A DNA stretch of 64,000 nt, from contig NZ_KI519516.1 in the NCBI RefSeq assembly GCF_000482865.1, forward strand, positions 118,574 to 182,573, written 5' to 3'. The first letter of the stretch is position 1. Every line of letters begins with the position of its first letter. The stretch is from Actinokineospora inagensis DSM 44258. GTDB lineage: Bacteria; Actinomycetota; Actinomycetes; Mycobacteriales; Pseudonocardiaceae. Under the pieces are notes generated by a model. It had not been told where the DNA came from. It ran no database searches and saw nothing but the letters and a program-made list of their open reading frames with translations. The translations under genes were made by a program, and so were the position numbers. Positions 15,245-35,164 of this stretch are shown piece by piece.

Positions 15245-16567
15245 TCAGCCGGTGATGGAGTCGCGGATGAAGGCCGCCACCCGGCTGACGCCCTCGACGA
15301 TGGTCGCCGGGTCGAGCGCGCTGCAGGACAGGCGGAGCTGGTGGTCACCCGCGTTGTCGTGGTGGAAGTAGGACATCGGGGTCCACAGGACCCCGTACTC
15401 GCCCGCCGCGCGGTGCAGGGCCAGGTCGTCGGCGACGAAGGGGACCGTGACGACCAGGAAGAAGCCACCCTCCGGCGAGTTCCACGAGATGCCGAGGGCA
15501 GCCCGGACGTCCGCCGGGAACTGCCGGTCCAGTTCGTCCAGGACGGTCTGCAGGTTGTCCCGGTAGAACGCGATGGCCTGGGCGTTGGCGTCGCGCAGGC
15601 GGCAGTTCGCCGCGACGAGCATGCCGCCGATCGCCGCCTGGCTCAGCGCCGCCGTGTTGACCGTGGTCATGCTCTTGATCTTGGACAGGCTGTCCGCCAG
15701 CGGCGCCACCGTGCCGTCGAGCGCGGCCACCGGCTGGTCGGCCAGCACGTAGCCGACGCGGGCGCCGGGGAAACCGGTCTTGGCGAAGGAGCCCAGGTAG
15801 ATGACCCGGTGGGCCCGGTCGAGGGCCTTGAGGGTCGGCTTCGGGGTGCCCTCGCGGAGGAAGAAGCCGTACGGGTTGTCCTCCAGCAGCAGCAGGTCCT
15901 CGGACTCGGCGACGGCCAGCAGACCCTCGCGGGCGTCCAGGGTCATGCTCGAACCGGACGGGTTGGCGAAGTCGGGGACCAGGTACATCGCGCGTGGCCG
16001 CTTGCCCTGCGCCCTGACCTCGGCGGCGGCCGCGGCGACGAGGGCGGGGTCGACGCCGTTCGGGCCCTCCGGCACGGGGTGGATGGCGACGTCGAGCACC
16101 TTCGCCGTGCCGGTGATGCCGACGTAGCAGGGGGAGCTGACCAGCAGCACGTCGTCCGGGCCGGTGAACAGGGCGCGCAGGACGAGCAGCATGCCCTCCT
16201 GGCAGCCGACCGTCACGACCACGTCGCGGGGGGAGACCTCGATTCCCTCGTCGTTCGAGACGGTTCGGGCGATGAGGTCGTGGATGTGCCCGTTGGTGCG
16301 GCCGTACTGGAAGATGTTGGTGCGGACCTGGGACGGCGTGAAGCCCCGGTCGTCCTCCAGGTACTTGATGTAGGTCTTGAGGTAGTCGAAGACCTGCTCG
16401 GTCTCGAAGAAGCCCTCGTACGGCCGCCCGGGGGCGAACGAGATGGCGTCCGGGAACCGGCCGACGACCTCGTTGAGGAAGTTCATCGACTCCATGTCCG
16501 GATCGGTGACGCTGCCGTGGAGGTCGGCCGCCTGCAGCAGCACCCCCGGCAAGGCCTCTACTGACAC
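15245..16567 (-). CDS. hpgT: HpgT-type aminotransferase (4-hydroxyphenylglycine formation)
   Basis: This fold type I PLP enzyme of about 440 residues belongs to the MocR/aminoadipate aminotransferase-like class that includes HpgT of glycopeptide clusters. Visible motifs are FAPGRPYEGFF, the PLP ring-stacking region VGCQEGM, VPDFANPSG with the cofactor Asn/Asp, and the Schiff-base Lys in GSFAKTGFPGARVGY. HpgT converts 4-hydroxybenzoylformate to 4-hydroxyphenylglycine using tyrosine as amino donor, which regenerates 4-hydroxyphenylpyruvate for HmaS. HmaS and Hmo genes lie in the same cluster, which supports the assignment. The GTG at 16567 gives the usual N-terminus; a longer start at 16609 is possible. 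It is the last gene before the terminator. Confidence 0.8.
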   Translation of the reverse strand: MSVEALPGVLLQAADLHGSVTDPDMESMNFLNEVVGRFPDAISFAPGRPYEGFFETEQVFDYLKTYIKYLEDDRGFTPSQVRTNIFQYGRTNGHIHDLIARTVSNDEGIEVSPRDVVVTVGCQEGMLLVLRALFTGPDDVLLVSSPCYVGITGTAKVLDVAIHPVPEGPNGVDPALVAAAAAEVRAQGKRPRAMYLVPDFANPSGSSMTLDAREGLLAVAESEDLLLLEDNPYGFFLREGTPKPTLKALDRAHRVIYLGSFAKTGFPGARVGYVLADQPVAALDGTVAPLADSLSKIKSMTTVNTAALSQAAIGGMLVAANCRLRDANAQAIAFYRDNLQTVLDELDRQFPADVRAALGISWNSPEGGFFLVVTVPFVADDLALHRAAGEYGVLWTPMSYFHHDNAGDHQLRLSCSALDPATIVEGVSRVAAFIRDSITG

Positions 16568-16639
16568 GCCTGCACCCCTGTCTGTCGGGTCAACCTCGGT
16601 CGGAACCACACGCGGGAAACCACACAGATTCCCGCATAG

Positions 16640-17572
16640 CTACAGGAATTTCCGCAAGTATGCGGCTGCTTCTTCCTGGGCCCGAGCGCCGTCGTCCAGG
16701 TCGCCCGCCATCGCGAAGAAGCCGTGGATCATGCCGTCGTACCGGCTGAGCTCGACCGGGACCCCGGCCGCGGCGAGCTTGGCGGCGTACGCCTCGCCCT
16801 GGTCGCGCAGCGGGTCGTACTCGGCGGTGATCACCAGGGCGGACGGCAGACCGGTGTGGTCGGTGGCGCGCAGCGGTGACACCCGCGGGTCGAGGCCCTC
16901 GGTCGGGGCGTCGCCGAGGTAGTGGCTCCAGTACCAGGCCACCGAGCGGTTGTTGAAGAACGCCGAGTCGGTGTTCTCGGCCATCGAGCCGGTCGACGCG
17001 GTGTAGTCCGTGTTCGGGTACACGAGCAGTTGGCACTTAAGAGCCGGACCCTGCCTGTCGCGCGCCATGAGGGAGATCACCGCGGCCAGGTTGCCGCCCG
17101 CGCTGTCCCCACCGACCGCGATTCGCGTGACGTCCGCGCCGTAAGAGGCACCGTTCGCCGCGAACCACTCGACCGCGCCGTAGCAGTCCTCAAGCGCGGC
17201 GGGGAACCGGTGCTCCGGTGCCAACCGGTAGCCGACACCGACGACGAGACACCCGACCGCGTTGGCCAGACGGCGGCAGATGGCGTCCGCCGTGTCGATC
17301 GTGCCGAGGGTCCAACCGCCGCCGAAGAAGTAGAACAGGACCGGCAGCGGGCCCTCGGCCTCCGGCCGGTAGATCCGCAGCGGGACCTCCCCGTCCGGAC
17401 CGGGGTAGGACAGGTCGACCACCGAGCCGACCGGTTCCGGGGTGCCGCCCGCGGCCTGGATGGAGGCCAGATCGTCGGCGCGGGCCTGCTCAAGGGACAG
17501 CGTGTACAGCGGCGGGGTGTCCTGGGCGACGCGGCGCTCGCGCATGGCCGCGACCTGGGGGTGCAGTGGCAT
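16640..17572 (-). CDS. HSL-family alpha/beta hydrolase with altered oxyanion motif
   Basis: This 310-residue protein of the hormone-sensitive-lipase family has nucleophile Ser157 in GGDSAGGN, an Asp in EYDPLRDQG and His in MIHGF. The family's HGGG oxyanion-hole motif reads FGGG (residues 83-86), so the usual His is Phe. It may still be active, since the Gly backbone amides are kept, but the change is uncommon. Within the cluster it could release the product from ACP, hydrolyse an ester, or act as an acyltransferase. It starts 20 bp after the enoyl-reductase stop. Confidence 0.85.
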   Translation of the reverse strand: MPLHPQVAAMRERRVAQDTPPLYTLSLEQARADDLASIQAAGGTPEPVGSVVDLSYPGPDGEVPLRIYRPEAEGPLPVLFYFFGGGWTLGTIDTADAICRRLANAVGCLVVGVGYRLAPEHRFPAALEDCYGAVEWFAANGASYGADVTRIAVGGDSAGGNLAAVISLMARDRQGPALKCQLLVYPNTDYTASTGSMAENTDSAFFNNRSVAWYWSHYLGDAPTEGLDPRVSPLRATDHTGLPSALVITAEYDPLRDQGEAYAAKLAAAGVPVELSRYDGMIHGFFAMAGDLDDGARAQEEAAAYLRKFL

Positions 17573-17592
17573 GGTCGTAGTCCTAGCCGAGA

Positions 17593-18372
17593 TCAGGCAC
17601 CCATGGCCAGGCCCATGGCGTGCACGCCGCCATCGACCATGAGCACCGATGCGGTGGTGGCGGGCAACAGGTCGGTGAACAGCGCGCACACCGAGGTGGC
17701 GACCGGCTTGGCGTCGTGCGGGTCCCAGCCGAGTGGCGCGTGCGAGTCCCAGTCGGCCTTGAGCTGGGCGAACCCCGGGATCGACACGGCGGCCTTGGTC
17801 CGGACCGGACCCGAGCAGACCAGGTTGACCCGGATCCCCTTCGGACCCAGCTCGCGCGCCAGGTAGCGGGTGACGGCCTCCAGACCGGCCTTCGCCACGC
17901 CCATCCAGTTGTACGTCGGCCAAGCGACTCGACCGTCGAACCCGAGGCCGACCACCGACGACCCCGGGCCGAGCAGCGGCAGGCAGGCCGAGACGAGCGC
18001 GCTGAACGAGTACGTCGACACGTGCACCGCGGTGGACACGTCCTCCCACGGCGCCTTGCTGAACTCACCACCCAGGCAGGTGGGCGGGGCGAACGCGATC
18101 GCGTGCAGCACCCCGTCCAACCCGTCCACATGCGCGCGGACCTTGTCCGCCAGCCCGGCGAGCTGGGTGTCGTCGGTGACGTCCAGCTCGATGACCGGCA
18201 CGTCCGGCCCGAGTCGCTTGGCCAGCCGCTCCACGAGCGACATCCGCCCGTAGCCGGTCAGCACCACCCGGGCGCCCTGCTCGGTGGCGTACTTGGCCAC
18301 CTCGAAGGCGATCGAGGAGTCGGTGATCACCCCGGTGATCAGCAGTCGCTTGCCGTCGAGCAGTCCGGGCAC
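17593..18372 (-). CDS. InhA/FabI-like enoyl-ACP reductase in the cluster
   Basis: This 259-residue SDR is strikingly like mycobacterial InhA along its length: ITGVITDSSIAF (cofactor loop), LDGVLHAIAF, then the catalytic Tyr154 and Lys161 in PTYNWMGVAKAGLEAV, and GWDPHDAKPVA near the end. Enoyl reductases reduce trans-2-enoyl-ACP with NADH. The position matching InhA Ser94 is Ala91 here. The start GTG 18372 has GGAGGACCTGAG before it. No ketoreductase or dehydratase gene accompanies it, so it may either cooperate with housekeeping enzymes, reduce an unusual unsaturated intermediate, or serve as a resistant duplicate. Confidence 0.88.
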   Translation of the reverse strand: MPGLLDGKRLLITGVITDSSIAFEVAKYATEQGARVVLTGYGRMSLVERLAKRLGPDVPVIELDVTDDTQLAGLADKVRAHVDGLDGVLHAIAFAPPTCLGGEFSKAPWEDVSTAVHVSTYSFSALVSACLPLLGPGSSVVGLGFDGRVAWPTYNWMGVAKAGLEAVTRYLARELGPKGIRVNLVCSGPVRTKAAVSIPGFAQLKADWDSHAPLGWDPHDAKPVATSVCALFTDLLPATTASVLMVDGGVHAMGLAMGA

Positions 18373-18416: not shown

Positions 18417-18890
18417 TCAGGTTGAGCGGGCCGGGCCGAGGAGCGACAGGTGCGTCGCGCGCCACCGGTCGGTCCACGGCTCGGGGCGGAAGGTCTCCGC
18501 GTTGAGCTTCACCACCGCGCGCAGGCCGCTCGCGTGCAGTTGGCCCTGCGGGCCGAGGCAGCGGAAGCCGTAGCGCAGGCTGGTGGTGCCCAGGTGGTCG
18601 AGCCACAGGTCCACGTCCAGCGGACCCGACCCGGCGTACGGGGCGGCCAGGTCGACCTCGAACCGGCGGACCACGTGGAACTTGTCCGGGTTGTTCTCGA
18701 TCGACGCTTCCCAGAAGAAGCCGTTGCCCTCGAAGAACCGGGCCGTGGCGCGCTCGACGTGCACGGCGTAGCGGGTGTTGTGCAGGAAGCCCATCGCGTC
18801 CAGCTCGTCGAAGAACACGTGGCTGGTGTAGCGGAAGGTGCCCTGCTTGGCGGAGTCCGGTGCTCCACTGTGGACGATAGCCTCGGTCAT
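18417..18890 (-). CDS. Hotdog-fold acyl thioesterase (4HBT-like)
   Basis: At 157 residues, it is the size of 4-hydroxybenzoyl-CoA-type thioesterases. The active-site region VFFDELDAMGFLHNTRYAVHVERA carries the expected Asp31 and Asn/Tyr. It would hydrolyse an acyl-CoA or acyl-ACP thioester, either as product release or as an editing enzyme for mis-primed ACPs. It lies 44 bp ahead of the enoyl reductase in the same operon. Confidence 0.82.
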   Translation of the reverse strand: MTEAIVHSGAPDSAKQGTFRYTSHVFFDELDAMGFLHNTRYAVHVERATARFFEGNGFFWEASIENNPDKFHVVRRFEVDLAAPYAGSGPLDVDLWLDHLGTTSLRYGFRCLGPQGQLHASGLRAVVKLNAETFRPEPWTDRWRATHLSLLGPARST

Positions 18891-18930: not shown

Positions 18931-20901
18931 TCACCCGGTCGCCACCGCCTCGCGCGCGGCAGCCGGGGCGGCCGCGAAACCCAGGCAGGTCAACGAGATC
19001 GCGTCCGCGTCGCCCAGGGTCACCGAGTTCACGCCCGGCCGGATGCCCGCCGCGGTCACCCAGTGCACCGACTCGGTCGGCACGCCCAGGGCGAACCGGC
19101 GCGGGTGCGGGTGGTCGTCGACGTCGATGACGTGGTACGGCCGCTTGGTGACGGCGAGGCCGCGGGTCTCGTACGAGCCGCCGTCCGCGGACGGGACCCG
19201 GTGCGGCCTGCACTGGCCGGTGGCCAGCATCCGCGCCAGCAGCGGGTCCGCGGTGCGGCGCAGGTCGATCTCCTGCAGCCGCGCCTCGATGAGCACCTCG
19301 GCCCGGACCACCGACCCGGGCACCGCGGGCGACTCCAGCAGGAACCCCGGCTCGTCGTGGTCGACCCGCACCCGCACGTCCGGCCCCATCACCTGCAGCA
19401 CACCGGCCTCGATCAGCGCGACCGTCTGCTCGATGCGCGCCGCGGGCGGCCCGATGGACAGGAAGGCGTTGAGCGGCGTGTAGTGCCGGTCGAGGTGGTC
19501 CCGGTGCGACTGTCCACTGAGGCCGTTGTGGTCGACGACCAGTCGGATCTCGTTGCGCAGGTCGCGCAGCACGTCCAGCGCGGCCTTCAACGGGTTGGTG
19601 ACGTTGCCCGCGCGGGCGTCGTCCGCGTCGCGGCCGAGGTAGGCCAACAACCACGCCTGGAAACCGGCCTGGTCGGTGAAGACCTGGCCGCGGTACGGGG
19701 TGGCGATGCGGTCCCAGTCCCAGCGGTCGGTCGCCGGGACGTCGAACTCGTCGAGCAGCGCCGCCTCGGCCGGGTCGCCCCACGCGTGGTCGAGGTAGCG
19801 GTCGCGGAACCGGGCGGCGACGCACTGGCAGTCGCGCCGGGTCAACAGCGCCGAGTAGTAGACCGTCTCGGCTTCCTTGGCGATCAACGGCCACAGCTCG
19901 GCGCGGAAGTCGATCCCGGTTCCGGCGGCCGCCCGCGCCCGCAGCCCGGCGATCACCTCGGGCGTGATCACCAGCGGGTCGTGCCTGCCGGACGGGCCCT
20001 TCTCGTTCTCGCCCCGCGCGTGGTAGGGGATGCCGCGCCGGGAACCCGCGTACAGCTTGGGTTCGCGGCCCGACGGGTGGTACACGAGCTTGCCGTCCAC
20101 GCGCTCGAACCGCCCACCGCGGCCGAGCGTGAACAGGGCGATGTGGTCGAAGAAGTTCAACCCGAGGCCGCGCAGCGCCACGGCGGTACCGGGGTGGATG
20201 GCGGCGACGTCCACATCGGCCGGGTTGGACGGCAGCAGGTAGGTCAGGCCGTGTTCGGCGGCGTACCCGGCCAACGCCCGCTCGCCCTCGCTCGGGCGCA
20301 CCGGCACGTGCCCCTGGGCCAGGACGACGGCGGCCAGGCAGTCGAGCCGGGTCCCGTCCTCCAACAACACGGTCTGCAGGCCGTCGGCGGTGCCGGTGGC
20401 GTCCTCAAGGGACACCGCCCGCGAGCGGTGCACCTCCACCCGCACCGTTCCCGGTGACTGCCGGACGACCCGGCGGAACACCCACTTCAGGTAGTGGCCG
20501 TAGAAGGCGCGCGACGGGTAGTCGTCGGGCCCCAGCGTGCGGGCCTGGGTCAGCACCTCGGGCGGGTAGCCCTCGCCGCCGCCCATCAGCACCAGGAACC
20601 GGGCCCACTCGTACAGGCTCGGTCCCTCCTCCAGCCGACCGGCCATGTCCACGCTGCCGTCGGTGAACATCGACACCTGGGAGGCGACGGTGTTGAGCAG
20701 CAGGTGGTTGTCCTGGCTGGTCCGCCACACCGCCCCGGCGCCGGGGTGGTGCGGGTCCACCACGTGGACGGTGAGCTCCACACGGGGGAAGTCCTTGGCG
20801 TTGGCGCAGATCCGTTCCAGCACCGACAGGCCGCGCGGGCCCATGCCGACCACGCACACGGCAATCCGACCGGTGCGGGACGGGTCAACACTCACAGCCA
20901 T
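18931..20901 (-). CDS. FAD/NAD(P)-binding oxidoreductase-like protein
   Basis: This large protein of 656 residues begins with a Rossmann motif VCVVGMGPRGLSVLERI, typical of the FAD/NAD(P)-binding family PF13454. It continues with AVWRTSQDNHLLLNTVASQ and later ALRGLGLNFFDHIALFT. The last 300 residues have no motif I recognise. Related proteins occur in siderophore and other secondary-metabolite clusters as putative flavin monooxygenases, but a reaction is not established. The ATG at 20901 follows GAGAGGAACGAG. It is flanked by PhyH (39 bp) and the thioesterase (40 bp). Confidence 0.7.
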   Translation of the reverse strand: MAVSVDPSRTGRIAVCVVGMGPRGLSVLERICANAKDFPRVELTVHVVDPHHPGAGAVWRTSQDNHLLLNTVASQVSMFTDGSVDMAGRLEEGPSLYEWARFLVLMGGGEGYPPEVLTQARTLGPDDYPSRAFYGHYLKWVFRRVVRQSPGTVRVEVHRSRAVSLEDATGTADGLQTVLLEDGTRLDCLAAVVLAQGHVPVRPSEGERALAGYAAEHGLTYLLPSNPADVDVAAIHPGTAVALRGLGLNFFDHIALFTLGRGGRFERVDGKLVYHPSGREPKLYAGSRRGIPYHARGENEKGPSGRHDPLVITPEVIAGLRARAAAGTGIDFRAELWPLIAKEAETVYYSALLTRRDCQCVAARFRDRYLDHAWGDPAEAALLDEFDVPATDRWDWDRIATPYRGQVFTDQAGFQAWLLAYLGRDADDARAGNVTNPLKAALDVLRDLRNEIRLVVDHNGLSGQSHRDHLDRHYTPLNAFLSIGPPAARIEQTVALIEAGVLQVMGPDVRVRVDHDEPGFLLESPAVPGSVVRAEVLIEARLQEIDLRRTADPLLARMLATGQCRPHRVPSADGGSYETRGLAVTKRPYHVIDVDDHPHPRRFALGVPTESVHWVTAAGIRPGVNSVTLGDADAISLTCLGFAAAPAAAREAVATG

Positions 20902-21923: not shown

Positions 21924-23000
21924 TCAGCCCGCGTTGGCGGGGCTTTCCGATGCGCGCAGCACGGCCTCGTAGAGGGCGCGGATGTTGCCGCTGCCGAACG
22001 TCTTGGCGCCGTGCCGGTCGATGACCTCCAGGAAGTAGGTGCCCCTGGCGTGGATGGAGCGGGTGAAGATCTGGAACACCTCGCCCCAGTGGTCCCGGTC
22101 GACCAGCACGTTGGTGCGGCGCAACGCCTCGACGCCCAGGTCGACCCGACCCAGCCGCTCCTGCAGCGCGTCGTAGTAGCTGGCCGGGGTGGACAGGAAC
22201 TGCACGCCGCGGTCGGCGAAGGTCTCCACCGAGCCGACGATGTCGTCGGTGAGGAACGCCAGGTGCTGCACGCCGGCGCCGTCGTGGCGGGCCAGGAAGT
22301 CGTCGATCTGACCCGGGCGGCGCGAGCTGTCCGGCTCGATCAGGGTGAAGGTGACCGTGGTGGACTTGCTCTGCACCACCTTGGAGTCCATCGCCTGGTC
22401 GCCGATCTCGATGTACTCCTCGAAGATCTGGTCGAAGTCGAAGACATCTCGGTAGAACTGCACGGTCTCGGTCAGCGTGCCCGCGGGCAGGCAGACGGCG
22501 ATGTGGTCGACGACGTCGAGCAGGTTGTCGCCGTCCTCAACGTCCTGGGTCAGCATGCCGATGACGCCGGGCAGGAACTCGTCGCGCGCGCCGTGCCGCT
22601 CGATGAGGCGGTGCCGCACGTCGCCGAAGCCGATCACCTCGGCGATGACCACGGTGGTCTCGCCGTCGGTGAAGGTCTTGGGCTCGGCGACCGAGGTGGC
22701 GCCCCGGCTGATCGCCTGCTCGTAGGCGGCCTTCGCGTCCTCGACGGTGAACGCCAGGCTGGAAACACCATCGCCGTGGCGAGCGACGTACTGGGCGGCG
22801 GCGCTGCGCGGGTTGAGACCCGAGGTGAGCAGGAGCTGTATTCGACCGTGCCGCAGCAGCAGCGACCGGTCGTCGGGCAAGCTCGTCTCCGGCCCGCCCT
22901 GGCCCGCGACCCGGAAACCGAGCGCGGTGCACAGGTAGAACGCGGACTGCTGCACGTCACCCACGTACAGTTCCACGTGGTCGATGTCCTGGATATCCAT
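21924..23000 (-). CDS. hmaS: 4-Hydroxymandelate synthase
   Basis: This 358-residue Fe(II) dioxygenase belongs to the HPPD/HMS family. Iron ligands are His166 (VVDHIAVCL), His246 (GVQHLAFLT) and Glu325 (YFLEVIDR). Ile340 in TFGSGNIRALYEA aligns with Ile335 of Amycolatopsis HmaS, where HPPDs have Phe; this residue is known to steer the reaction to benzylic hydroxylation. It should turn 4-hydroxyphenylpyruvate into 4-hydroxymandelate, the first committed step to 4-hydroxyphenylglycine. A strong GGAGG site precedes the ATG. The 151-bp upstream gap may hold its own promoter. Confidence 0.9.
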   Translation of the reverse strand: MDIQDIDHVELYVGDVQQSAFYLCTALGFRVAGQGGPETSLPDDRSLLLRHGRIQLLLTSGLNPRSAAAQYVARHGDGVSSLAFTVEDAKAAYEQAISRGATSVAEPKTFTDGETTVVIAEVIGFGDVRHRLIERHGARDEFLPGVIGMLTQDVEDGDNLLDVVDHIAVCLPAGTLTETVQFYRDVFDFDQIFEEYIEIGDQAMDSKVVQSKSTTVTFTLIEPDSSRRPGQIDDFLARHDGAGVQHLAFLTDDIVGSVETFADRGVQFLSTPASYYDALQERLGRVDLGVEALRRTNVLVDRDHWGEVFQIFTRSIHARGTYFLEVIDRHGAKTFGSGNIRALYEAVLRASESPANAG

Positions 23001-23151: not shown

Positions 23152-23739
23152 TCATTGGTCCATAACCGCGTGGAACCGACACACATCACCACCGGTGCGG
23201 ACGCAGGAGACCCGCTTGTCACGGACGGTGACGCCCATTCCCTGGAACCAGCCCTCGCGCATCTGCGGGCACGGGCACTCGTAGCCGTCGAGCGCGCGGG
23301 CGGCCTGCAACATCTTCAACGAGTAGTTCTTGGTGATGACGCTCTCCCACTCGTTGTCCCCGGTGACCTCGTGCTCGGCGCTCATCATCGCCTCGGTCCA
23401 GGAGATCTTCGGCACGGCGTCGAACCACTTGACGAACTCCTCGACCGACATGGCGGTGAAGTCGACCCCGTGCTGGTGGCGGTACCAGCGGCCGATCCGG
23501 CGGAACACGAACCGGATGGCCTCCGCGTTGATCTCGTTGGCCGCCTCCTGGCCGAACCTGCGCAGCACCCCCTGGTACCAGCGGGCGTCGTGCAGCCACC
23601 AGAACTCGTGCAGCGGCGGATCGTCCGGAAAACCGTGCGCGGAATCACCCGAATCGGAATCCACACCATTTCCGGCAATTCCGCATGCGCCATTCAGCTC
23701 AGCGCCCGACCGGTCTTTGTCGACTTCCGTGCCAGCCAT
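23152..23739 (-). CDS. Uncharacterised protein with Trp-rich domain and C-terminal Cys motifs
   Basis: This 195-residue soluble protein has about 40 disordered residues, then PLHEFWWLHDARWYQGVLRR and FGQEAANEINAEAIRF, reminiscent of DUF6125. The C-terminus has ECPCPQ (Cys155, Cys157) and VSCVRTGGDVCRFH (Cys179, Cys187), resembling the ligand or metal site of V4R/ATC-hydrolase-like proteins. The four cysteines could bind a metal. It lies between ketosynthase KS1 and hmaS and is co-directional with both. Its function is unknown; it could be a chaperone, cyclase or hydrolase of the pathway. Confidence 0.65.
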   Translation of the reverse strand: MAGTEVDKDRSGAELNGACGIAGNGVDSDSGDSAHGFPDDPPLHEFWWLHDARWYQGVLRRFGQEAANEINAEAIRFVFRRIGRWYRHQHGVDFTAMSVEEFVKWFDAVPKISWTEAMMSAEHEVTGDNEWESVITKNYSLKMLQAARALDGYECPCPQMREGWFQGMGVTVRDKRVSCVRTGGDVCRFHAVMDQ

Positions 23740-26743: not shown

Positions 26744-27322
26744 TCAGACGGTTGGGCCCCTGCCGAGCAGGAGCGCGTGCGCGCTGTCGGTCGCCTGGTC
26801 CACCAGGACGAGCAGGACCTCGTCGGCGGCGTCGTCGGCGATCAGCAGGTCGGCGAGGGACAGCGCGTCGGCGGTCGGGTCGCCGACCGGGCTGGTGCAC
26901 ACCACCGGCCCGCGCAACCCCCAGGTCACCGCGACCCGGCCCGCCGCGGAGTTGGCCACGGACTGGAAGAACAGGATCGGCGGCATCCGGCGGCCGCGGT
27001 CGACCGCCTGGGCCACCGCGGTCGCGGTGCCGACGTCGCCGCGGGTGCTGACCACGACGACCGCGGTGCGGTCACCGCGCGCGGGGTCGGCGGGCGCCTC
27101 GCCGTGCACCTGGCGCAGGCACTCGTCGGCGGCCTGGGCGATCAGCGGCGCGAAGGACGAGCTGACGAACCCGGGCAGCGGCGCCGGTTCGGCCGGGCCG
27201 CCCGCGCTCGGGAACCGCCCTTCCGCGCGGACGACCAGGTCCGCCACCATGCCACCATCCACAATGGACTTGTCCACAACAGACCCGTCCAGAGTGGGCA
27301 GACCGGCGTCCGTCGTCGTCAT
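26744..27322 (-). CDS. Truncated ketosynthase-like protein, CLF-type, no active Cys
   Basis: At 192 residues this matches only the N-terminal half of a ketosynthase (Ketoacyl-synt_2-like, PF13723): FFQSVANSAAGRVAVTWGLRGP and VLLVLVDQATDSAHALL. Where a KS has its nucleophilic Cys the sequence is TSPVGDP, without Cys. It starts inside the stop codon of KS2 (ATGA), so it is probably made stoichiometrically with KS2 and could act as a chain-length-factor-like partner. Similar short proteins occur in aryl polyene clusters. There is no sign of a frameshift; the frame is clean and well coded. Confidence 0.72.
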   Translation of the reverse strand: MTTTDAGLPTLDGSVVDKSIVDGGMVADLVVRAEGRFPSAGGPAEPAPLPGFVSSSFAPLIAQAADECLRQVHGEAPADPARGDRTAVVVVSTRGDVGTATAVAQAVDRGRRMPPILFFQSVANSAAGRVAVTWGLRGPVVCTSPVGDPTADALSLADLLIADDAADEVLLVLVDQATDSAHALLLGRGPTV

Positions 27323-28473: not shown

Positions 28474-28735
28474 CCGTGCGACCGCCCACCAGTTCGGTGA
28501 GCACCTCGGCCGCGGCGGCCACGGTGTTCATCCTGGACAGGTCGGCGTCCTCCAGGTCGAGCTCGACGCCGTAGCGCTGCTCGGTCTGGTGCAACAGCCA
28601 GGCCAGCTCCAGCGAGTCGAGGTCGTCGGAGTCTCCTTTGGACACCTGGGCGCGGTAGCCGGAGACCATCTCCAGCACGTCCTGCCTGCTCAACCGGGCG
28701 GGCGCCGCGGTCACCGGCCGGTCACTCACGAACAC
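28466..28735 (-). CDS. Acyl carrier protein ACP1
   Basis: At 89 residues or fewer, it has the phosphopantetheine Ser in DDLDSLELAWLLHQTEQRYGV. The GTG at 28735 or the in-frame GTG at 28729 could start it; both overlap the ACP2 stop. As a free-standing ACP it would carry the growing chain. No dedicated phosphopantetheinyl transferase is in the window. Confidence 0.88.
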   Translation of the reverse strand: MFVSDRPVTAAPARLSRQDVLEMVSGYRAQVSKGDSDDLDSLELAWLLHQTEQRYGVELDLEDADLSRMNTVAAAAEVLTELVGGRTDG

Positions 28736-29000
28736 TGCCCTCGGCGACCGGCTCGAGGCGGGCGGCGATGTTGTCGACGAACTCGTCGATGGTCATCAGC
28801 GACACCTGCTCGATCTCGTCCTCGTCGATCTTGACGCCGAACCGGTCCTCCAACTGCACGGTCAGCTCGGCCATCGACAGCGACTCCAGGTCGAGGCCCG
28901 CCGGGCCGAGCTGGGTGTCGCCGGAGACGTCCGGGGTGGCGTACTGCAGGCCCACCAGCGCGTCGATGACGAACGCGCGCACTTCTTCCTTGCCGCTCAT
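28722..29000 (-). CDS. Acyl carrier protein ACP2
   Basis: This 92-residue acidic carrier protein has GLDLESLSMAELTVQLEDRFG, where the Ser of ESL is the predicted phosphopantetheine site (ESL in place of the usual DSL). The ATG at 29000 follows GAGAGGAAT. Two different ACPs in one operon suggest division of labour, for example starter versus extender loading. It lies 149 bp downstream of ligase 2. Confidence 0.87.
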   Translation of the reverse strand: MSGKEEVRAFVIDALVGLQYATPDVSGDTQLGPAGLDLESLSMAELTVQLEDRFGVKIDEDEIEQVSLMTIDEFVDNIAARLEPVAEGSVRE

Positions 29001-29149: not shown

Positions 29150-30619
29150 CTAGGTCTGCTGCTCGGCCTGGACGGCCTCGGCCGCCGCGCGCAGGGCTAC
29201 CCGGTCGCGCAACAGCTTTCCGCTGGACGTGCGTGGCATGGTCGGCAGCACGTGCACCGCGCGGGGGCGCTTGTAGCCCGCCAGCCGCTCGCGCAGGAAC
29301 CCGTCGATGTCAGTGCTTGCCGTACCACTGGAACTGTCGGTGGCGACGACGGAAACGTAAGCCTTGATCCCCTCGTCGTAGAGGACGACCGCCGATTCCA
29401 CCCCGGGCGCGGCGGCCAGGGTCTGCTCGACCTCGGTCAGGTCCACCTTGAGACCGCCGATGGACACCTGCGAGTCCAGCCTGCCCCTGATGGTGACCCG
29501 ACCGGTGTCCGGGTCGACCTCGCCCGCGTCGCGGGTGCGCAGCCAGCCGTCGGCCCAGCGGGTCGGGTCGACCGGTCCGATGTAGGGGGACCGCTCCCGG
29601 CTGAGCAGCACCTCGCCGTCGACGACCCGGACCGCGATGCCGCGGGTCGGGGTGAGCGACGGCCGGTGCGCGCCCTCGATGTCGGTCGCGATCACGCCGA
29701 GCTCGGTCATCCCGTACATGTTGCCCAGGGTGATGCCGTACCCCTCGGTGACCGCGCGCCAGAGCTCGGGGCGGACCAGCTCGCCGCCGGTGATCATGCG
29801 CCGGAACCGCGGCAGGCTGGGCGGTTCGGCGACCGCGGCCAGGATCTCGGCCTGGGACGGGACGCCGATCAGGGTGGTCGGCTGGTCGCCGTCGGCCAGC
29901 GCCTTGAGGATGCCGTCGATGGTCAGCCGCGGCGGCACCACCATGGGCACACCGGCGTGCAGGCCGTGCAGCAGACCGCCGACCAGACCGAGCACGTGCA
30001 CCATGGACCCCAGCACCACCGCGCGTTCGCCGCGGCGCGGGAAACCCTCGATGGCGTCGTAGCGGTCGAGCTCGTCGACCACGTCCGCCGCGGTCCGACC
30101 GATGATCTTGGACGGTCCGGTCGAGCCGGAGCTGAGCTGGATCAGCGAGTGCGGGGTGCGCGCCGGGACGCCCGGCTCGTAGCGCAGGTAGTCCGGGTCC
30201 ACCTCGTACACCGCGCGCAGCGCACCGGAAGCGGGTTTCGCCGGCTGCACGAGCACCTGCGGGAGCAACCGGTCGAGCGCGCCGTCGATCTCGTGCGGGG
30301 TCAGCCGGTAGTCCAAAAGGGACACTTGGGCGCCCAGCCGCCACGCGGCCAGCAGCACGGTCACGAAGCACAGCGACGGGGGCAGTCGCAATGCGACCGA
30401 CCCGCCGGGGCGGACCCCGACAGCGGCCAACTCGCCCTCGCGCTGTTGCACCATGCGGCGCAACGCGGTTCGGTCCACCTGGGTGCCGAAGTGCAGCGCG
30501 AGCTCGGTGTCCGGCCCGCGCAGCAGGAGTTCGTCCACCCACGACCCGGCCGCGGGCGCGCCGTCCACAGTGACGGCACCCCCCGCCGCGACCGGGGATA
30601 AGTGGGTCTCGCTCGGCAT
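29150..30619 (-). CDS. ANL-superfamily ligase 2 (aryl/acyl-ACP or -CoA ligase)
   Basis: This 489-residue adenylate-forming enzyme has LIQLSSGSTGPSKIIGR (A3), MYGMTELGVIATD (A5), the hinge IRGRLDSQVSIGGLKVDLTEVE (A8) and the final Lys in PRTSSGKLLRDRVALR (A10). Its compact N-terminus and A8 sequence resemble aryl-acid ligases, but the substrate is not certain. It is the first gene of the long minus-strand operon and directly precedes the two ACPs, so aryl loading onto ACP is the favoured role. ATG 30619 has GGGGGA upstream. Confidence 0.85.
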   Translation of the reverse strand: MPSETHLSPVAAGGAVTVDGAPAAGSWVDELLLRGPDTELALHFGTQVDRTALRRMVQQREGELAAVGVRPGGSVALRLPPSLCFVTVLLAAWRLGAQVSLLDYRLTPHEIDGALDRLLPQVLVQPAKPASGALRAVYEVDPDYLRYEPGVPARTPHSLIQLSSGSTGPSKIIGRTAADVVDELDRYDAIEGFPRRGERAVVLGSMVHVLGLVGGLLHGLHAGVPMVVPPRLTIDGILKALADGDQPTTLIGVPSQAEILAAVAEPPSLPRFRRMITGGELVRPELWRAVTEGYGITLGNMYGMTELGVIATDIEGAHRPSLTPTRGIAVRVVDGEVLLSRERSPYIGPVDPTRWADGWLRTRDAGEVDPDTGRVTIRGRLDSQVSIGGLKVDLTEVEQTLAAAPGVESAVVLYDEGIKAYVSVVATDSSSGTASTDIDGFLRERLAGYKRPRAVHVLPTMPRTSSGKLLRDRVALRAAAEAVQAEQQT

Positions 30620-31049: not shown

Positions 31050-32123
31050 CTAAGGGAGCAATCCCGGGCCTATGTCGGCCAACCGGGGAGCACCGGCGAG
31101 CACCATCGCCTCCGCCAGCTCGTCGCGCAGCAGGCCGAGCACCGCACCGGCGCCCGCGGCGCCCGCCACGGCCAACCCGTGCAGCACCGGCCGTCCGACC
31201 AGCACCGCGTCCGCGCCGAGGGCCAGCGCCTTGAGCACGTCGGTGCCCCGGCGCACGCCGCCGTCGACCAGCACCGGTACCCGCCCGGCCACCTCGCGCG
31301 CCACCGCGGGCAGCGCGTCGACCGCCGCAATGGCCGAATCGAGCTGACGACCCCCGTGATTGGACACGATGACGCCGTCAACCCCGTGTTCCACGGCCAA
31401 CCGCGCGTCGTCCGGGTGCAGAATTCCCTTGAGCAGCACCGGCAACCGGGTGAATTCTCGCAACCACCCGAGATCCGACCACGTGATCGTCGGGTCGAAT
31501 TGCTCCCGGGAATGACTCTGAATCGACGAACCGGATTCGCCCGTTTGCGCGACCGCCATCGCGGCCGGGTCCACATTGGCCGCCGTGATATCCGGGGGAA
31601 CCGTGAATCCGCTTCGCAGGTCCCGAAGCCTGCGGGCCACCCGCGGCGCGTCCACGGTGAGGACCAGTGCGCGAATTCCCGCGTCCTCGGCCCGGCGGAT
31701 CAGATCGGCCAACGCGTCCCGGCGGCGCAGCCAGTACAACTGCAGCCACAGCGGGGCGGTGGTCACCGCGGCGACGTCGGCGAAGGTGCGGCTGGCGAAC
31801 ATGCTCAGCACGAACGGCACGCCGTGCTCGGCGGCGGCGCGCGCGGTGGCCACCTCGCCGTCCGGGTGCGCGAGCCGGTGGTATGCCATGGGCGCGATGC
31901 CGATCGGCGCCCGCACCGGGTCACCGAGCAGCGTCGCGCCCAGGTCCGTCTTCGCCACGTCGACCAGCACCCGCGGTCGCAGGGCCAGCCGGTCGAACGC
32001 GGCGCGGTTGGCACCCAGGGTGATCTCCGCCCCGCTGCCGCCCTGCAGGAAACCCCAGGTGGGCTCCGGTAATCGGTCCTCGGCCGCCGTCTCGTAGTCC
32101 GCCAGGCACAGCAAGTCGCCCAT
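31050..32123 (-). CDS. hmo: 4-Hydroxymandelate oxidase
   Basis: This FMN-dependent 2-hydroxyacid oxidase of 357 residues matches Hmo of glycopeptide clusters in size and motif: PIGIAPMAYHRLAHPDGE, the FMN-phosphate region, Lys in PVLLKGIL, catalytic His/Arg in VSNHGGRQLDS, and VDGGVRRGTDVLKALALGA. It should oxidise 4-hydroxymandelate to 4-hydroxybenzoylformate. Start ATG 32123 has GGAG nine bases upstream; the in-frame GTG at 32141 is an alternative. It stands alone between two intergenic regions, so it may have its own promoter with the motif at 32244. Confidence 0.87.
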   Translation of the reverse strand: MGDLLCLADYETAAEDRLPEPTWGFLQGGSGAEITLGANRAAFDRLALRPRVLVDVAKTDLGATLLGDPVRAPIGIAPMAYHRLAHPDGEVATARAAAEHGVPFVLSMFASRTFADVAAVTTAPLWLQLYWLRRRDALADLIRRAEDAGIRALVLTVDAPRVARRLRDLRSGFTVPPDITAANVDPAAMAVAQTGESGSSIQSHSREQFDPTITWSDLGWLREFTRLPVLLKGILHPDDARLAVEHGVDGVIVSNHGGRQLDSAIAAVDALPAVAREVAGRVPVLVDGGVRRGTDVLKALALGADAVLVGRPVLHGLAVAGAAGAGAVLGLLRDELAEAMVLAGAPRLADIGPGLLP

Positions 32124-32262: not shown

Positions 32263-32334
32263 TTTTTCTCCCCAGACAGCGGTTTATCGACCGTTGCCCA
32301 CGTCAGAGCGGTAGCAGGGGTCCAGAAACAGGGG

Positions 32335-33840
32335 TCAGGCGTTGGGCCAGTTCAGCGACACCGCGCGCTCGGCGAGCATCAGCACCGGCAGCGTGGTGGT
32401 CGACCGCGGGCTCACCGGGATCGCGGCGGCGTCGATGACCCACAGGTCGTCGATCCCGCGCACCCGGCAGGTCTCGTCAACCACGGCACCGGCGTCCGAG
32501 TCGACCCCCATCCGGCAGGTGGCGACCGGGTGGTTGTACGTGCCGACCGTCGCGTGCACCGCCTGGACGAGGTCCGCGTCCGCGACCCCCGCGCCGGGCA
32601 ACCGCTCCGCCGACACGACACTCGCCAGCGGCGACTGCTCGACCAGCCTGCGGATCACCCGCAGCCCCTCGGCGACCCGCTCGGCGTCGCGCGGATCCCG
32701 GTAGATGCCCGTGTCGACGACGGGCAGGGCGGCCGGGTCGGCGGAGGCCAGCCGCACCGAGCCGACCGAGTGCGGGGCGACCAGCGCCGAGGTCATCCGC
32801 AGGTCGAACCCGGTCGGGTGGCCCTCGGCCGGGCGGGCGGGCATCGCGGCCATGGCGTGGATGTGCACGTCCACGTCCGGCTCGGCCGGGCTGGTCTTGA
32901 TCGACAGCATCGTGCGCAGCGGCGCGGGCCGCTGCGCCGGGCGGTCCTCGGCGACGGCGAAGATCGCCGGGGTGGCCGGGTGCTCCAGCAGGACCGAACC
33001 GACGCCGGGCAGGTCGGCGACCACGTCCACGCCGACCTCGCGCAGGTGCTCGGCCGGGCCGACCCCCGAGCGCAGCAGGATCGCCGGGCTGCCGTAGGCG
33101 CCCGCGCTGAGCACGACCTGCTTGGCGGTGATCTCCTCACCGGAGGCCAACCGGACACCGACCGCGCGGCCGTCGCGGATCAGCACGGTGTCCACCTCGG
33201 CGTCCGACCGGACGGTGAGGTTCGGCCGGTCGGCGGCGTCGGCCAGGTACACCAGCGCCGCGTTGTAGCGCCTGCCGCCCACCTGGTTGAGCGGGGTGCT
33301 GCCCGCGCCCAGCGAGTCGGGCGCGTTGTGGTCGTCGACCAGCGCGAAACCCGCCTTCTCGCAGGCGGTCAGGAAGCGCTCCTGGGTGTCGGTCAACTCG
33401 TCGCGGGCGTACCGCCGGATCGGGACCCGGCCCGCTGGCACCCGCGGCTCGGCGTTGTAGTCGTGCTCGATGGCCTGGTAGACGGGCAGCACCTCGTCCC
33501 AGGACCAGCGCGGCAGGCCCAGATCCGCCCACGCGCGGTGGTCGGTGGGCCTGCTGCGCAGGGCGACGCAGAAGTTGACGGCGGTCGACCCGCCGACGAC
33601 CTTGCCGCGCGGGATCGGGAACGTGTGCCCACCGTTGACCAGCGGGGCGCTCACGACCCCCCAGTCGTGGTCGCGCGGGAAGCCGAGCCCGTCGAGCAGC
33701 TCCGGCGGCCACTGCTCCTCGGTGGCGTAGTGCGGACCCGCCTCGAGCAGCAGCACCGAGCGGTTGGCGTCCTCGGTGAGCCTGGCGGCCACCACGCAGC
33801 CCGCTGCGCCCGCGCCGACGACGATCACATCGTGTGTCAT
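32335..33840 (-). CDS. GMC-family FAD oxidoreductase
   Basis: The 501-residue flavoprotein has the N-terminal VIVVGAGAAGCVVAARL dinucleotide motif, the GMC signature VVGGSTAVNFCV (PS00623-like), the second signature SAGAYGSPAILLRSGVGP, and the active-site His in TYNHPVATCRMG. The usual second Asn/His near the C-terminus appears to be Thr (TTTLPVLMLAER). GMC enzymes oxidise alcohols to aldehydes or ketones. In context it may oxidise a hydroxyl introduced by PhyH or P450. It lies 43 bp after the P450 gene, probably in one transcript with it. Confidence 0.87.
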   Translation of the reverse strand: MTHDVIVVGAGAAGCVVAARLTEDANRSVLLLEAGPHYATEEQWPPELLDGLGFPRDHDWGVVSAPLVNGGHTFPIPRGKVVGGSTAVNFCVALRSRPTDHRAWADLGLPRWSWDEVLPVYQAIEHDYNAEPRVPAGRVPIRRYARDELTDTQERFLTACEKAGFALVDDHNAPDSLGAGSTPLNQVGGRRYNAALVYLADAADRPNLTVRSDAEVDTVLIRDGRAVGVRLASGEEITAKQVVLSAGAYGSPAILLRSGVGPAEHLREVGVDVVADLPGVGSVLLEHPATPAIFAVAEDRPAQRPAPLRTMLSIKTSPAEPDVDVHIHAMAAMPARPAEGHPTGFDLRMTSALVAPHSVGSVRLASADPAALPVVDTGIYRDPRDAERVAEGLRVIRRLVEQSPLASVVSAERLPGAGVADADLVQAVHATVGTYNHPVATCRMGVDSDAGAVVDETCRVRGIDDLWVIDAAAIPVSPRSTTTLPVLMLAERAVSLNWPNA

Positions 33841-33883
33841 GAACCCGATCTTCGTGTGAGTGCCAGTGATGGGGTAGCGCCGA

Positions 33884-35164
33884 TCAGTCGACCCGGACCG
33901 GGAGCGTGCTCAGCCCGCGGATGAGGGTGTTGGACTGCCACACCAGACTGGCCGGGTCGACCGCCAGCCGCAGCTTGGGGAAACGGGTCAGCAGCTTCTC
34001 GAAGGCGACCCTGCCCTCGATCCTGGCCAGCGGGGCGCCGACGCAGTAGTGGATGCCGTGGCCGAAGGTCATGTGCCCGCCCATCGGCCGGGTGATGTCC
34101 ATCCGGTCCGCCTCTGTGAAGAACTCGCCGTCCCGGTTGGCCGAGGTGAGGATGGTGGCCACGAACGAGCCCGCCGGGATGGTGGCCCCGCCGATCTCCA
34201 CGTCCTCGGTCGAGTACCGCATCATCGAGGTGTTCGCCGGGCCGTCGTAGCGCAGGAACTCCTCGACCGCGTTGGGCAGCAACGTGAAGTCCGCGCGCAG
34301 CTTGGCCAACTGGTCGGGGTGGGTGAGCAGGCTGAGCGTGCCGTTGCCGATCAGGTGCACCACGGTCTCGTGCCCGGCGAACAGGGTGAGGAACGCCATC
34401 GACACGACCTCGACCGCGGTGAGCTGCTGGTCCTCGTCGCGGGCGGTGATCAGCGCGGTGAGCAGGTCGTCCTCGGGGTGGCGCTGCTTCTCGGCGATCA
34501 GCTCGATCAGGTAGGCGGCCATCGCGGCGGCCGAGGACTTGGCGGCCTCGGACCGGTTGTCCGAGGTGAGCGCGACCGGGGCGCTGTCGGTGCCCACGTC
34601 CAGCGCCCAGCCGTGGAACGCGGTGCGGTCGGCCGCGGGCACGCCGAACAGGTCGCAGATCACGGTCAGCGGGAGCGGGCTGCCGAACTGGGAGATCAGG
34701 TCGACCTCGCCGGACGGGTCGATCGCGTCGAGCAGGTCGTCGACCAACTGGAGGACGTTGGGCTTGAGGCCCTCCATCCGGCGCGGGGTCAACGCCTTGG
34801 CCATGAAGCGGCGCAGCCGGGTGTGGTCCGGCGGGTCGACGTTGAGCAGGTGCCTGCCGAACTGGGTGCCGTACTCCTCCTGGGTGGGCGGCACGTCCGA
34901 GCCGGTCTCGACCATCTTGCGGCCGCGGACCAGGTCGCTGGAGAAGCGGCGGTCCGCCATCACCGCCCGGACGTCCTCGTGGCGGGTGACCATCCAGACG
35001 CGCAACCCGTTGGGCATCAGGACCTCGCGCACCGGCGACTCGGCGCGCAGCCGGTCGTAGATCGTGTGCGGGTCCTGCATGTCGGTGACCTTGAAGACGA
35101 ACAGGTCCTTGTCCTCGGGGCGGGCGGATTGTTGGTCTTGCCGTAAGGCGCTTTCCTGAGACAC
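33884..35164 (-). CDS. Cytochrome P450
   Basis: This 426-residue soluble bacterial P450 has the I-helix FAGHETVVHLIGNG, the ExxR motif EEFLRYDGP and the heme-binding loop FGHGIHYCVGAPLAR with the Cys ligand. Start GTG 35164 has GAGGAG upstream and removes a long unrelated N-terminus. It would hydroxylate or couple the product using reductase partners encoded elsewhere; no ferredoxin gene is adjacent. It is divergent from tetR and probably controlled by it. Confidence 0.92.
   Translation of the reverse strand: MSQESALRQDQQSARPEDKDLFVFKVTDMQDPHTIYDRLRAESPVREVLMPNGLRVWMVTRHEDVRAVMADRRFSSDLVRGRKMVETGSDVPPTQEEYGTQFGRHLLNVDPPDHTRLRRFMAKALTPRRMEGLKPNVLQLVDDLLDAIDPSGEVDLISQFGSPLPLTVICDLFGVPAADRTAFHGWALDVGTDSAPVALTSDNRSEAAKSSAAAMAAYLIELIAEKQRHPEDDLLTALITARDEDQQLTAVEVVSMAFLTLFAGHETVVHLIGNGTLSLLTHPDQLAKLRADFTLLPNAVEEFLRYDGPANTSMMRYSTEDVEIGGATIPAGSFVATILTSANRDGEFFTEADRMDITRPMGGHMTFGHGIHYCVGAPLARIEGRVAFEKLLTRFPKLRLAVDPASLVWQSNTLIRGLSTLPVRVD

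What the first reader, a model, noticed from the sequence alone, without database searches (positions are those of the whole stretch)
15245..35164. NRPS-free cluster that joins the hydroxyphenylglycine pathway to dissociated ketosynthases and ACPs
Seen: hmaS, hmo and an hpgT-type gene beside two intact ketosynthases, a Cys-less half-KS, two ACPs, two ANL ligases, a thioesterase, an InhA-like reductase, a PhyH enzyme, FAD protein, GMC and P450, in about 20 kb with no condensation or peptidyl-carrier module. Known: HmaS-Hmo-HpgT normally feed NRPSs making vancomycin-class or related peptides. Inference: the Hpg or 4-hydroxybenzoylformate unit is a starter or building block for a type II-like PKS assembly, which I do not recognise from any described pathway.
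Basis: partly seen in the sequence, partly recalled or inferred. Interest (0 to 1): 0.85.

Follow-up and report, generated by a model that had tools for sequence, protein, structure and literature searches.

The report
Hydroxyphenylglycine-fed, nitrite-linked polyketide gene cluster
This actinomycete gene cluster pairs a tyrosine-derived hydroxyphenylglycine supply with a small polyketide assembly line and with relatives of enzymes that build nitrogen-nitrogen bonds from nitrite, a combination whose product I could not identify.

Summary
In detail: 18 minus-strand genes (15245-35164) carry HmaS, an Hmo-like flavoenzyme, an HpgT-like aminotransferase, two ketosynthases, a Cys-less half-KS, two ACPs and two ANL enzymes, without a condensation domain. 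Four other species of the genus (Actinokineospora) keep the block gene for gene. The A7 reductase and AHBA synthase were not found; Hpg genes and PhyH stand in their place. HmaS, PhyH, ANLa, ANLb and KS2 occur together in 67 of 80 related loci. The Hpg pathway thus probably feeds a type II-like PKS making an aryl compound with an N-N bond. Against this: 11 of 12 Micromonospora/Kribbella-type genomes tested lack CreE, ANLb scores 494 bits against the diazotase cut-off of 975, and ANLa lacks the acidic residue expected for an alpha-amine. The product and the amine attacked are unproven. New variant of a known kind.

The parts
33884..35164 (-). cytochrome P450 (tailoring)
   Evidence: PF00067 100 bits; NF045816 234 bits, far below its cut-off of 700
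32335..33828 (-). GMC oxidoreductase (MftG-like; tailoring)
   Evidence: PF00732/PF05199; TIGR03970 338 bits, cut-off 387
31050..32123 (-). Hmo-like FMN alpha-hydroxyacid oxidase, presumed 4-hydroxymandelate oxidase
   Evidence: PF01070 447 bits; PDB Hmo 5zzp 304 bits, glycolate oxidase 1gyl 312 bits, tandem lactate oxidase 7f22 417 bits over two stretches
29150..30568 (-). ANLa, AvaA1/CmaA1-type acyl-ACP ligase
   Evidence: PF00501; 43% to the A1-position protein of an ava/cma-type cluster; V at the Asp235-equivalent position
28722..29000 (-). ACP1, A2-type (extender) ACP, LESL site
   Evidence: PF00550
28466..28729 (-). ACP2, A3-type (starter) ACP, DSLELAWLLH with the W/H signature
   Evidence: signature described in PMC10777205
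27319..28473 (-). KS1, A4-type ketosynthase (Cys142, His276, His313)
26744..27250 (-). half-KS = short chain-length-factor-like partner (A5 position), no catalytic residues
   Evidence: NF058659 40.9 bits (cut-off 80); fold matches include ApeC CLF 6qsp_B and ishigamide CLF 6kxd_B
25063..26709 (-). ANLb, AvaA6/Tri17-group ANL, presumed nitrite-activating
   Evidence: NF058622 494 bits (cut-off 975; next family 173); PDB 8ztz 390 bits, Tri17 345 bits
23777..25018 (-). KS2, FabF-like ketosynthase with complete C-H-H
   Evidence: NF005589 438 bits, cut-off 387
23152..23664 (-). AvaB/CmaB-position protein (ATC_hydrolase-like, four invariant Cys)
   Evidence: PF14196 24 bits, cut-off 28.1; 37% to the B-position protein of the ava/cma-type cluster
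21924..23000 (-). HmaS, 4-hydroxymandelate synthase
   Evidence: best PDB hits 3zgj and 2r5v (322, 313 bits; HmaS by recall), then HPPDs 7yvv (287) and 1t47 (246); S-V-Y site residues; also passes the HPPD model TIGR01263
20941..21852 (-). PhyH Fe(II)/2-oxoglutarate oxygenase, conserved partner of HmaS
   Evidence: PF05721; HxD motif in 96 of 96 members
18931..20859 (-). CreE-type L-aspartate N-oxygenase (nitrosuccinate former)
   Evidence: 61% to 8cp2 over 590 aligned residues, 11 of 11 core residues kept
18417..18890 (-). hotdog thioesterase-like protein
   Evidence: TIGR02799/PF13279, below cut-offs
17593..18372 (-). FabI/InhA-type enoyl-ACP reductase
   Evidence: NF005908 393 bits, cut-off 299; InhA model 333 bits, cut-off 430
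16640..17572 (-). HSL-type alpha/beta-hydrolase (LipP1-like)
   Evidence: NF058653 393 bits, cut-off 350
15245..16543 (-). HpgT-like PLP aminotransferase
   Evidence: PF00155; 51-55% to aminotransferases beside other HmaS genes
35473..36099 (+). divergent TetR-type regulator, conserved at the border
   Evidence: PF16925; present in 4 of 4 collinear relatives

Best explanation
A cluster of the ava/cma kind (small type II PKS plus nitrite-activating ANL enzyme) in which the 3,4-AHBA supply has been replaced by the hydroxyphenylglycine pathway. HmaS turns 4-hydroxyphenylpyruvate into 4-hydroxymandelate, the Hmo-like enzyme oxidises it to 4-hydroxyphenylglyoxylate, and the aminotransferase can give Hpg. 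ANLa loads an aryl acid (glyoxylate, benzoate or Hpg) on ACP2, and KS1 with its half-size chain-length factor adds malonyl from ACP1. KS2, FabI, the hotdog protein, PhyH, P450 and GMC elaborate the chain. The CreE homologue makes nitrosuccinate, CreD from the paralogous cluster on contig C31 releases nitrite, and ANLb uses it to form an N-N bond on an Hpg-derived amine. With no AvaA7-type reductase, the nitrogen is probably kept as a diazo or downstream N-N group. Shown by sequence: the enzyme families, the CreE site, the conserved order, and that searches for A7 and AHBA synthase found nothing convincing in this genome. Inferred: reaction order, which acid ANLa loads, which amine ANLb attacks, and the product.
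For: Order and homology with an ava/cma-type cluster in G193, identified by its A6 at 1061 bits against a cut-off of 975, AHBA-type aldolase and DHQS-II, and E and D genes. CreE: 61% identity to 8cp2, 11 of 11 core residues (structure identified in PMC10404684). ANLb: best NCBIfam hit is the AvaA6 diazotase and its PDB hits include Tri17 (Tri17 named in PMC11705231). ACP2 carries the starter-ACP W/H signature described in PMC10777205. HmaS: PDB ranking and Tyr344 (Phe in the two clear HPPDs). Aminotransferase 55% identical to one in G051 that follows HmaS, an Hmo-like gene and a 2338-aa protein with an AMP-binding-like stretch, which I take for an NRPS but did not scan. No AHBA synthase (DHQS-II) match in G000. 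Each of the 5 species with this cluster has a single CreD match, directly beside the CreE of its second cluster. In Streptomyces loci such as L074 and L081 the HmaS/PhyH/ANLb set lies beside adjacent CreE and CreD genes.
Against: ANLb reaches only half of the AvaA6 equivalog cut-off, so its substrate probably differs and its activity is untested. 11 of 12 Micromonospora/Kribbella/Catellatospora/Longispora/Salinispora-type genomes with the same cassette have no CreE match at E<=1e-30; over the whole search 14 of 34 had none. About half of ava-like clusters lack it too (72 of 134, PMC10777205). No CreD in this cluster. The diazo-forming members described in PMC11705231 act mostly on aryl amines (Tri17 on hydrazones), and no aryl-amine gene is present. 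The Hmo-like enzyme is not separable from glycolate oxidases by PDB score. In KS1 relatives the first catalytic His is Asn in 42 of 66 rows, so KS1 chemistry may vary in the family. Relatives without KS1/CLF (Streptomyces type) or without any KS in the stretch read (G088 type) show that the PKS part is not essential to the core.
Confidence: 0.5

Rival explanations
1. Diazotisation is only a way to remove an amine, as in avenalumate and p-coumarate: the final product is a plain 4-hydroxyphenyl polyketide with no nitrogen left.
For: Same backbone as ava/cma, where diazotisation is followed by loss of N2 (PMC10777205). FabI or another reductase could supply hydride (inference).
Against: No convincing AvaA7 homologue: best match in G000 is 28 bits; three of the four collinear relatives have 60-70-bit matches elsewhere in the genome. 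The arene supplied here has no ring amine to remove.
Confidence: 0.15
2. One reading: Hpg or 4-hydroxybenzoylformate is simply a starter unit for type II-like chain extension; ANLb is an ordinary acyl ligase and CreE belongs to other chemistry.
For: HmaS-Hmo-aminotransferase, ACP2 starter signature and KS1-CLF; Micromonospora/Kribbella-type relatives keep ANLb without CreE.
Against: ANLb scores 494 bits with the AvaA6 diazotase model against 173 for the next family and matches Tri17; CreE keeps every core residue tested and sits inside the conserved block.
Confidence: 0.25
3. A cispentacin/coronafacate-like KS-CYF system that makes a cyclopentenone from 2-oxoglutarate, attached to Hpg.
For: Half-KS matches AmcG (40.9 bits) and KS1 matches AmcF (197 bits); FabI reduces the cyclopentenone in cispentacin synthesis (PMC10698177).
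Against: Both scores are below the curated cut-offs (80 and 325). ANLa is 54% and 39% identical to the ANL of clusters with PABA and 3,4-AHBA genes; the KS1/half-KS pair sits in the ava/cma gene order.
Confidence: 0.07

Closest known systems
ava (avenalumic acid) and cma (p-coumaric acid) clusters, PMC10777205
   Same: A1-A2-A3-A4-A5-A6 order, B-position protein and CreE homologue; small type II PKS with two ACPs and short CLF; nitrite-linked ANL enzyme
   Different: No AvaH/AvaI, AvaA7, ketoreductase or CreD gene in the block; Hpg pathway, PhyH, KS2, FabI, hotdog, P450, GMC and esterase added; ANLb far below the A6 equivalog cut-off
HmaS-Hmo-HpgT cassettes of glycopeptide and other NRPS clusters
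   Same: All three enzyme types together; aminotransferase 51-55% identical to those near HmaS in six other loci
   Different: No NRPS in the block; PhyH and esterase are added; no prephenate dehydrogenase gene in the block
Cispentacin KS-CYF system (AmcF-AmcG), PMC10698177
   Same: KS paired with a half-size partner without catalytic residues, small ACPs, an ANL loader, FabI-type reduction
   Different: AmcF/AmcG models below cut-off; loader resembles aryl-acid loaders; the aminotransferase is class I/II, not class III like AmcC
dob cluster (4-diazo-3-oxobutanoic acid), PMC13061610
   Same: A carrier-bound nitrogen-containing acyl unit extended by a PKS towards a diazo compound is the same general idea
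   Different: dob uses hydrazone oxidation; here CreE and an AvaA6-group ANL are predicted

Membership tests
ava/cma-type diazotase type II PKS clusters | acyl-ACP ligase, two ACPs, KS and CLF in the order A1-A5 | tested here: met
ava/cma-type diazotase type II PKS clusters | A6 diazotase (NF058622 equivalog) | tested here: not met
   494 bits against a cut-off of 975; same group, not the equivalog (positive control G193 1061 bits)
ava/cma-type diazotase type II PKS clusters | 3,4-AHBA synthase genes (AvaH/AvaI) | tested here: not met
   no DHQS-II match at E<=1e-5 in G000 or G244; found in control G193 and in 3 of the 4 collinear relatives elsewhere in the genome; the aldolase was not searched in G000
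ava/cma-type diazotase type II PKS clusters | A7 denitrification reductase | tested here: not met
   best in G000 28 bits
ava/cma-type diazotase type II PKS clusters | ANS pathway, CreE and CreD | tested here: inconclusive
   CreE in the cluster with intact site; CreD only on contig C31
CreE L-aspartate N-oxygenase | residues named for the flavin site, aspartate chamber and tunnel of 8cp2 | tested here: met
   11 of 11 kept; the two outer residues Arg593 and Arg597 are not
HmaS-Hmo-HpgT pathway | HmaS rather than HPPD | tested here: met
   3zgj and 2r5v rank first (tool labels HPPD and PCZA361.1, HmaS by recall); Tyr344 in 93 of 93 cassette rows, Phe in the two clear HPPDs. Against: passes the HPPD model TIGR01263, 369 of 277 bits
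HmaS-Hmo-HpgT pathway | 4-hydroxymandelate oxidase | tested here: inconclusive
   Hmo 304 bits, glycolate oxidase 312 bits; co-location only
HmaS-Hmo-HpgT pathway | transaminase to Hpg | tested here: inconclusive
   51-55% to aminotransferases near HmaS in six other loci, 52% in four more; no characterised HpgT compared, activity not tested
KS-CYF (cispentacin) systems | AmcF and AmcG equivalogs | tested here: not met
   197 of 325 bits and 40.9 of 80 bits
KS-CYF (cispentacin) systems | 2-oxoglutarate loading by AmcH | not testable with these tools
   needs biochemistry

The most novel reading that the evidence does not exclude
An actinobacterial family, with 226 loci of its marker gene in one scan of species genomes, in which hydroxyphenylglycine is loaded on a carrier protein and its alpha-amine is diazotised with enzyme-made nitrite, giving an alpha-aryl alpha-diazo acyl unit that small type II ketosynthases, or in some members condensation domains, build into unknown reactive natural products.
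Probability: 0.25. Interest if true: 0.85.

Novelty: new variant of a known kind. Interest (0 to 1): 0.62.

Why it matters
It would move the Hpg pathway from peptide antibiotics to type II polyketides, and nitrite-dependent N-N chemistry from ring amines to a tyrosine-derived unit. The HmaS/PhyH/ANL cassette occurs in Micromonospora, Kribbella, Catellatospora, Salinispora, Kitasatospora and Streptomyces, and my searches showed no described product, so a capture reagent for diazo compounds could reveal a whole product family at once.

Tried and rejected
A cyclopentenone (KS-CYF, cispentacin) reading was my first lead from the AmcF/AmcG hits. I dropped it when relatives of ANLa turned up beside PABA genes (L067) and 3,4-AHBA-type genes (L068) and the ava/cma order became clear.

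A 3,4-AHBA starter was rejected for G000 because no DHQS-II homologue was found there. One exists in 3 of the 4 collinear relatives, elsewhere in their genomes.

An NRPS elsewhere using this Hpg: 43 condensation-domain matches in the genome. In the stretches fetched from seven contigs, 24 adenylation domains were found by a motif; none has Phe, Tyr or His at the 239 position of the Hpg code, one has Val (code recalled, not from a call). The scan misses domains without the motif.

Literature: ten searches. Those aimed at this gene combination (13, 38, 56, 87; 25 of 33 papers listed in 38, complete lists in the other three) showed no paper whose title or visible abstract describes it; a subscription-journal paper would be missed.

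The conserved KS1 triad that I expected does not hold: Cys142 is kept in 66 of 66 rows, but the first His is Asn in 42 of 66 and the second is Gln in 10 of 66; the window has all three. The KS1 count of full rows printed used a wrong Cys column and is not used.

The composition, ORF and plasmid searches gave mainly context. The model of the B-position protein is moderate (pLDDT 71.7) and is not used as evidence.

It lowered the HpgT test to inconclusive and added the HPPD-model hit.


Full report
What is there. Gene calling by codon-position composition gives 18 genes on the minus strand between 35164 and 15245. In order of transcription: P450, GMC, Hmo-like, ANLa, ACP1, ACP2, KS1, half-KS, ANLb, KS2, ATC_hydrolase-like, HmaS, PhyH, FAD protein, hotdog, FabI-type, esterase, aminotransferase (families; gaps). 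None hits the condensation-domain family.

Where it is. The half-KS search over 297 genomes of the family found close matches (77-79%) in four same-genus genomes. Three of these share contig lengths with Actinokineospora terrae, diospyrosa and globicatena. In 4 of 4 the 18 genes are collinear and the flank with the TetR-type and SfnG-type genes is the same, while the other flank differs from the window. The window genome and these four species also carry a second, related cluster (C31 in G000). The half-KS matched 9 of the 16 same-genus genomes listed. The four with only the second type (G045, G078, G119, G201) keep the aminotransferase in it, while the second clusters that coexist with the window type show none in the stretches read.

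What the backbone is. ANLa-ACP1-ACP2-KS1-half-KS-ANLb, then the small B-position protein and the FAD protein, follows the ava/cma order A1-A2-A3-A4-A5-A6-B-(A7)-E given in PMC10777205 (parts 1 and 2 of 4 read). A family genome (G193) serves as control: its A6 scores 1061 bits with the AvaA6 model (cut-off 975), it has AHBA-type aldolase and DHQS-II genes, and E and D genes. Window ANLb scores 494 bits with the same model, the next family 173. Its best solved relatives are 8ztz (390 bits, function not known to me) and Tri17 (345 bits; 9BQ0/8TF7 named as Tri17 in PMC11705231, passages read). Three ANL signatures (G[ST][ST]ExG, TGD, [ST]GK) are in 92 of 92 ANLb members; the strict SSGTTGxPK form is in 41 of 92, the window among them.

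The FAD protein is CreE-like. Its best solved relative is 8cp2 (712 bits), identified in PMC10404684 as L-aspartate N-hydroxylase (passages read). Over 590 aligned residues, 360 are identical (61%). Eleven residues named in that paper for the flavin site, the aspartate chamber and the tunnel are all kept; two outer Arg are not. CreD is missing from the cluster. The five species with this cluster each have one CreD match at E<=1e-30, in each case directly beside the CreE of the second cluster (C31 in G000). In G000 the best A7 match has 28 bits, and no DHQS-II of the AHBA pathway was found.

The half-KS. AlphaFold gives pLDDT 88.2. Foldseek's best PDB matches are FabF-type synthases, with the short chain-length factor ApeC (6qsp_B) third and the ishigamide CLF (6kxd_B) sixteenth. 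KS1 keeps Cys142 in 66 of 66 aligned rows; its first His is kept in 24 of 66 (Asn in 42) and its second in 56 of 66 (Gln in 10); the window has both. KS2 has the full triad in 89 of 97 rows; the eight others are additional KS-like genes near the ends of Micromonospora loci. ACP2 has the W/H signature of starter ACPs in the window and, by motif, in 61 of 72 members; ACP1 in 0 of 78.

The Hpg part. HmaS ranks with 3zgj and 2r5v (322 and 313 bits) above HPPDs such as 7yvv (287) and 1t47 (246). The tool labels 3zgj as HPPD and 2r5v as PCZA361.1; that both are 4-hydroxymandelate synthases is recalled. The gene also passes NCBIfam's HPPD model (369 of 277 bits), as no HmaS model was among its hits. 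Three positions that align with residues changed in 3zgj (mutant description recalled) read S-V-Y in the window and S-V-Y (90) or S-A-Y (3) in 93 of 93 cassette sequences longer than 320 aa; two HPPDs at 36-37% identity read S-V-F, so only the Tyr discriminates. Of three intermediate sequences (41-44%), two have Tyr and one Phe. The aminotransferase is 51-55% identical to those near HmaS in six other loci and 52% in four more. One of the six (G051) has HmaS, an Hmo-like gene and a 2338-aa protein with an AMP-binding-like stretch, which I take for an NRPS but did not scan. The Hmo-like enzyme cannot be told from glycolate oxidases by PDB score.

Spread. A genome-contig scan with the PhyH alignment found 226 encoding loci, 80 kept. 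Of these 80: HmaS 80, ANLb 74, KS2 73, ANLa 68, KS1 with half-KS 60, Hmo 23, esterase 20, FAD protein 11, aminotransferase 11 within the stretch held, at the identity thresholds; GMC and P450 at 45% or more in none (the stretches of the three Actinokineospora loci end before those genes). Two of the six loci without ANLb (L099, L128) end near the contig edge. Four (L072, L073, L075, L138) have HmaS, PhyH, aminotransferase and Hmo without a KS or ANL match. In L073 three ATP-grasp enzymes and a prephenate dehydrogenase lie beside it, and in L138 an EamA transporter. I read this as a module for a modified Hpg amino acid. Four family genomes (G088, G030, G159, G172) have ANLa, ACP2, ANLb, HmaS, PhyH, aminotransferase and esterase but no KS match in the 20 kb read. 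E1-type subunits and a C-T protein were identified in G088, a C-A-T protein in G030.

Mechanism. HmaS, Hmo and the aminotransferase supply 4-hydroxyphenylglyoxylate and Hpg. ANLa loads an aryl acid on ACP2, and KS1-CLF extends it from ACP1. CreE (with CreD in trans) makes nitrite, and ANLb forms an N-N bond on an Hpg-derived amine. Because the KS-free relatives keep ANLa, ANLb, ACP2 and the Hpg genes, the amine is likely in the Hpg part rather than in the polyketide part; this is inference. Against it stands the Val at the Asp235-equivalent of ANLa (77 V, 3 S, 1 T, 1 A among 82 typed of 86; 4 untyped; the position was read from the alignments and the numbering is recalled). Three loaders with Ser include the two whose neighbours make 3,4-AHBA-type precursors (G193, L068), and the PABA-linked one has Ala. 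The loaded acid may therefore be the keto acid or benzoate, with the amine introduced later or on a separate Hpg. Also against it, 11 of 12 Micromonospora, Kribbella, Catellatospora, Longispora and Salinispora genomes tested have no CreE match at E<=1e-30 (20 of all 34 genomes searched do), so nitrite would have to come from elsewhere, or ANLb has another role there.

Comparison and verdict. Works like: ava/cma. Member of: not strictly, since the A6 equivalog, A7 and AHBA tests fail. I call it a new variant of a known kind. In the literature searched (open-access full texts, ten searches; relevant ones) I found no description of HmaS with a diazotase-type type II PKS. PMC10698177 was read in parts 1-3 of 8, PMC11705231 and PMC10404684 in passages, PMC13061610 as abstract, outline and one section.

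Noticed in passing
window 23152-23664; alignment A3: The AvaB/CmaB-position protein (AvaB is reported to stimulate its PKS in an unknown manner, PMC10777205) has four Cys invariant in 7 of 7 sequences, and its moderate AlphaFold model (pLDDT 71.7) matches H-NOX, Bet3/TRAPP and the phenol-sensing domain of PoxR. It may be a metal-bearing small-molecule binder.
   Followed up: partly
G000 contig C31 (L066, L027, L028): A paralogous HmaS cluster with KASIII-like gene, ACP, a 264-293-aa protein without family hits, PPTase, aaRS-like ligase, E1-type subunits, two condensation proteins, ABC transporter, glycosyltransferase and adjacent CreE-CreD (families read in the relative G201). It lacks the aminotransferase, which the window cluster has; the two may share supplies.
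   Followed up: partly
G000 contigs C2:116915-118789 and C28:7538-9427: Two more CreE homologues (57%) although only one CreD match is found in the genome at E<=1e-30.
   Followed up: no
G000 contig C10 near 76120 (L041): A third half-KS-like gene (36-37%) with an ANLa-like gene (36%) in a different gene setting.
   Followed up: no
KS1 family, alignment: The first catalytic His of KS1 is Asn in 42 of 66 rows, the ava/cma-type control G193 not having the full triad either, while the window copy has His.
   Followed up: no
L067 (Streptomyces sp. NBC_00335 plasmid): Same ANLa-ACP-ACP-KS1-CLF-KS2-B-ANLb set linked to pabB and a class IV aminotransferase, with a YcaO/TfuA region nearby: probably a PABA-fed sister version.
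   Followed up: partly
L073 (Streptomyces djakartensis), also L072 and L075: HmaS-PhyH-prephenate dehydrogenase-aminotransferase-Hmo beside ATP-grasp ligases (three in L073) and a luciferase-like monooxygenase: a possible NRPS-free route to a peptide with a modified Hpg.
   Followed up: partly
window 12373-15052: GT2, GtrA and a 426-aa protein without Pfam hit downstream of the cluster, not found beside it in the collinear relatives.
   Followed up: no
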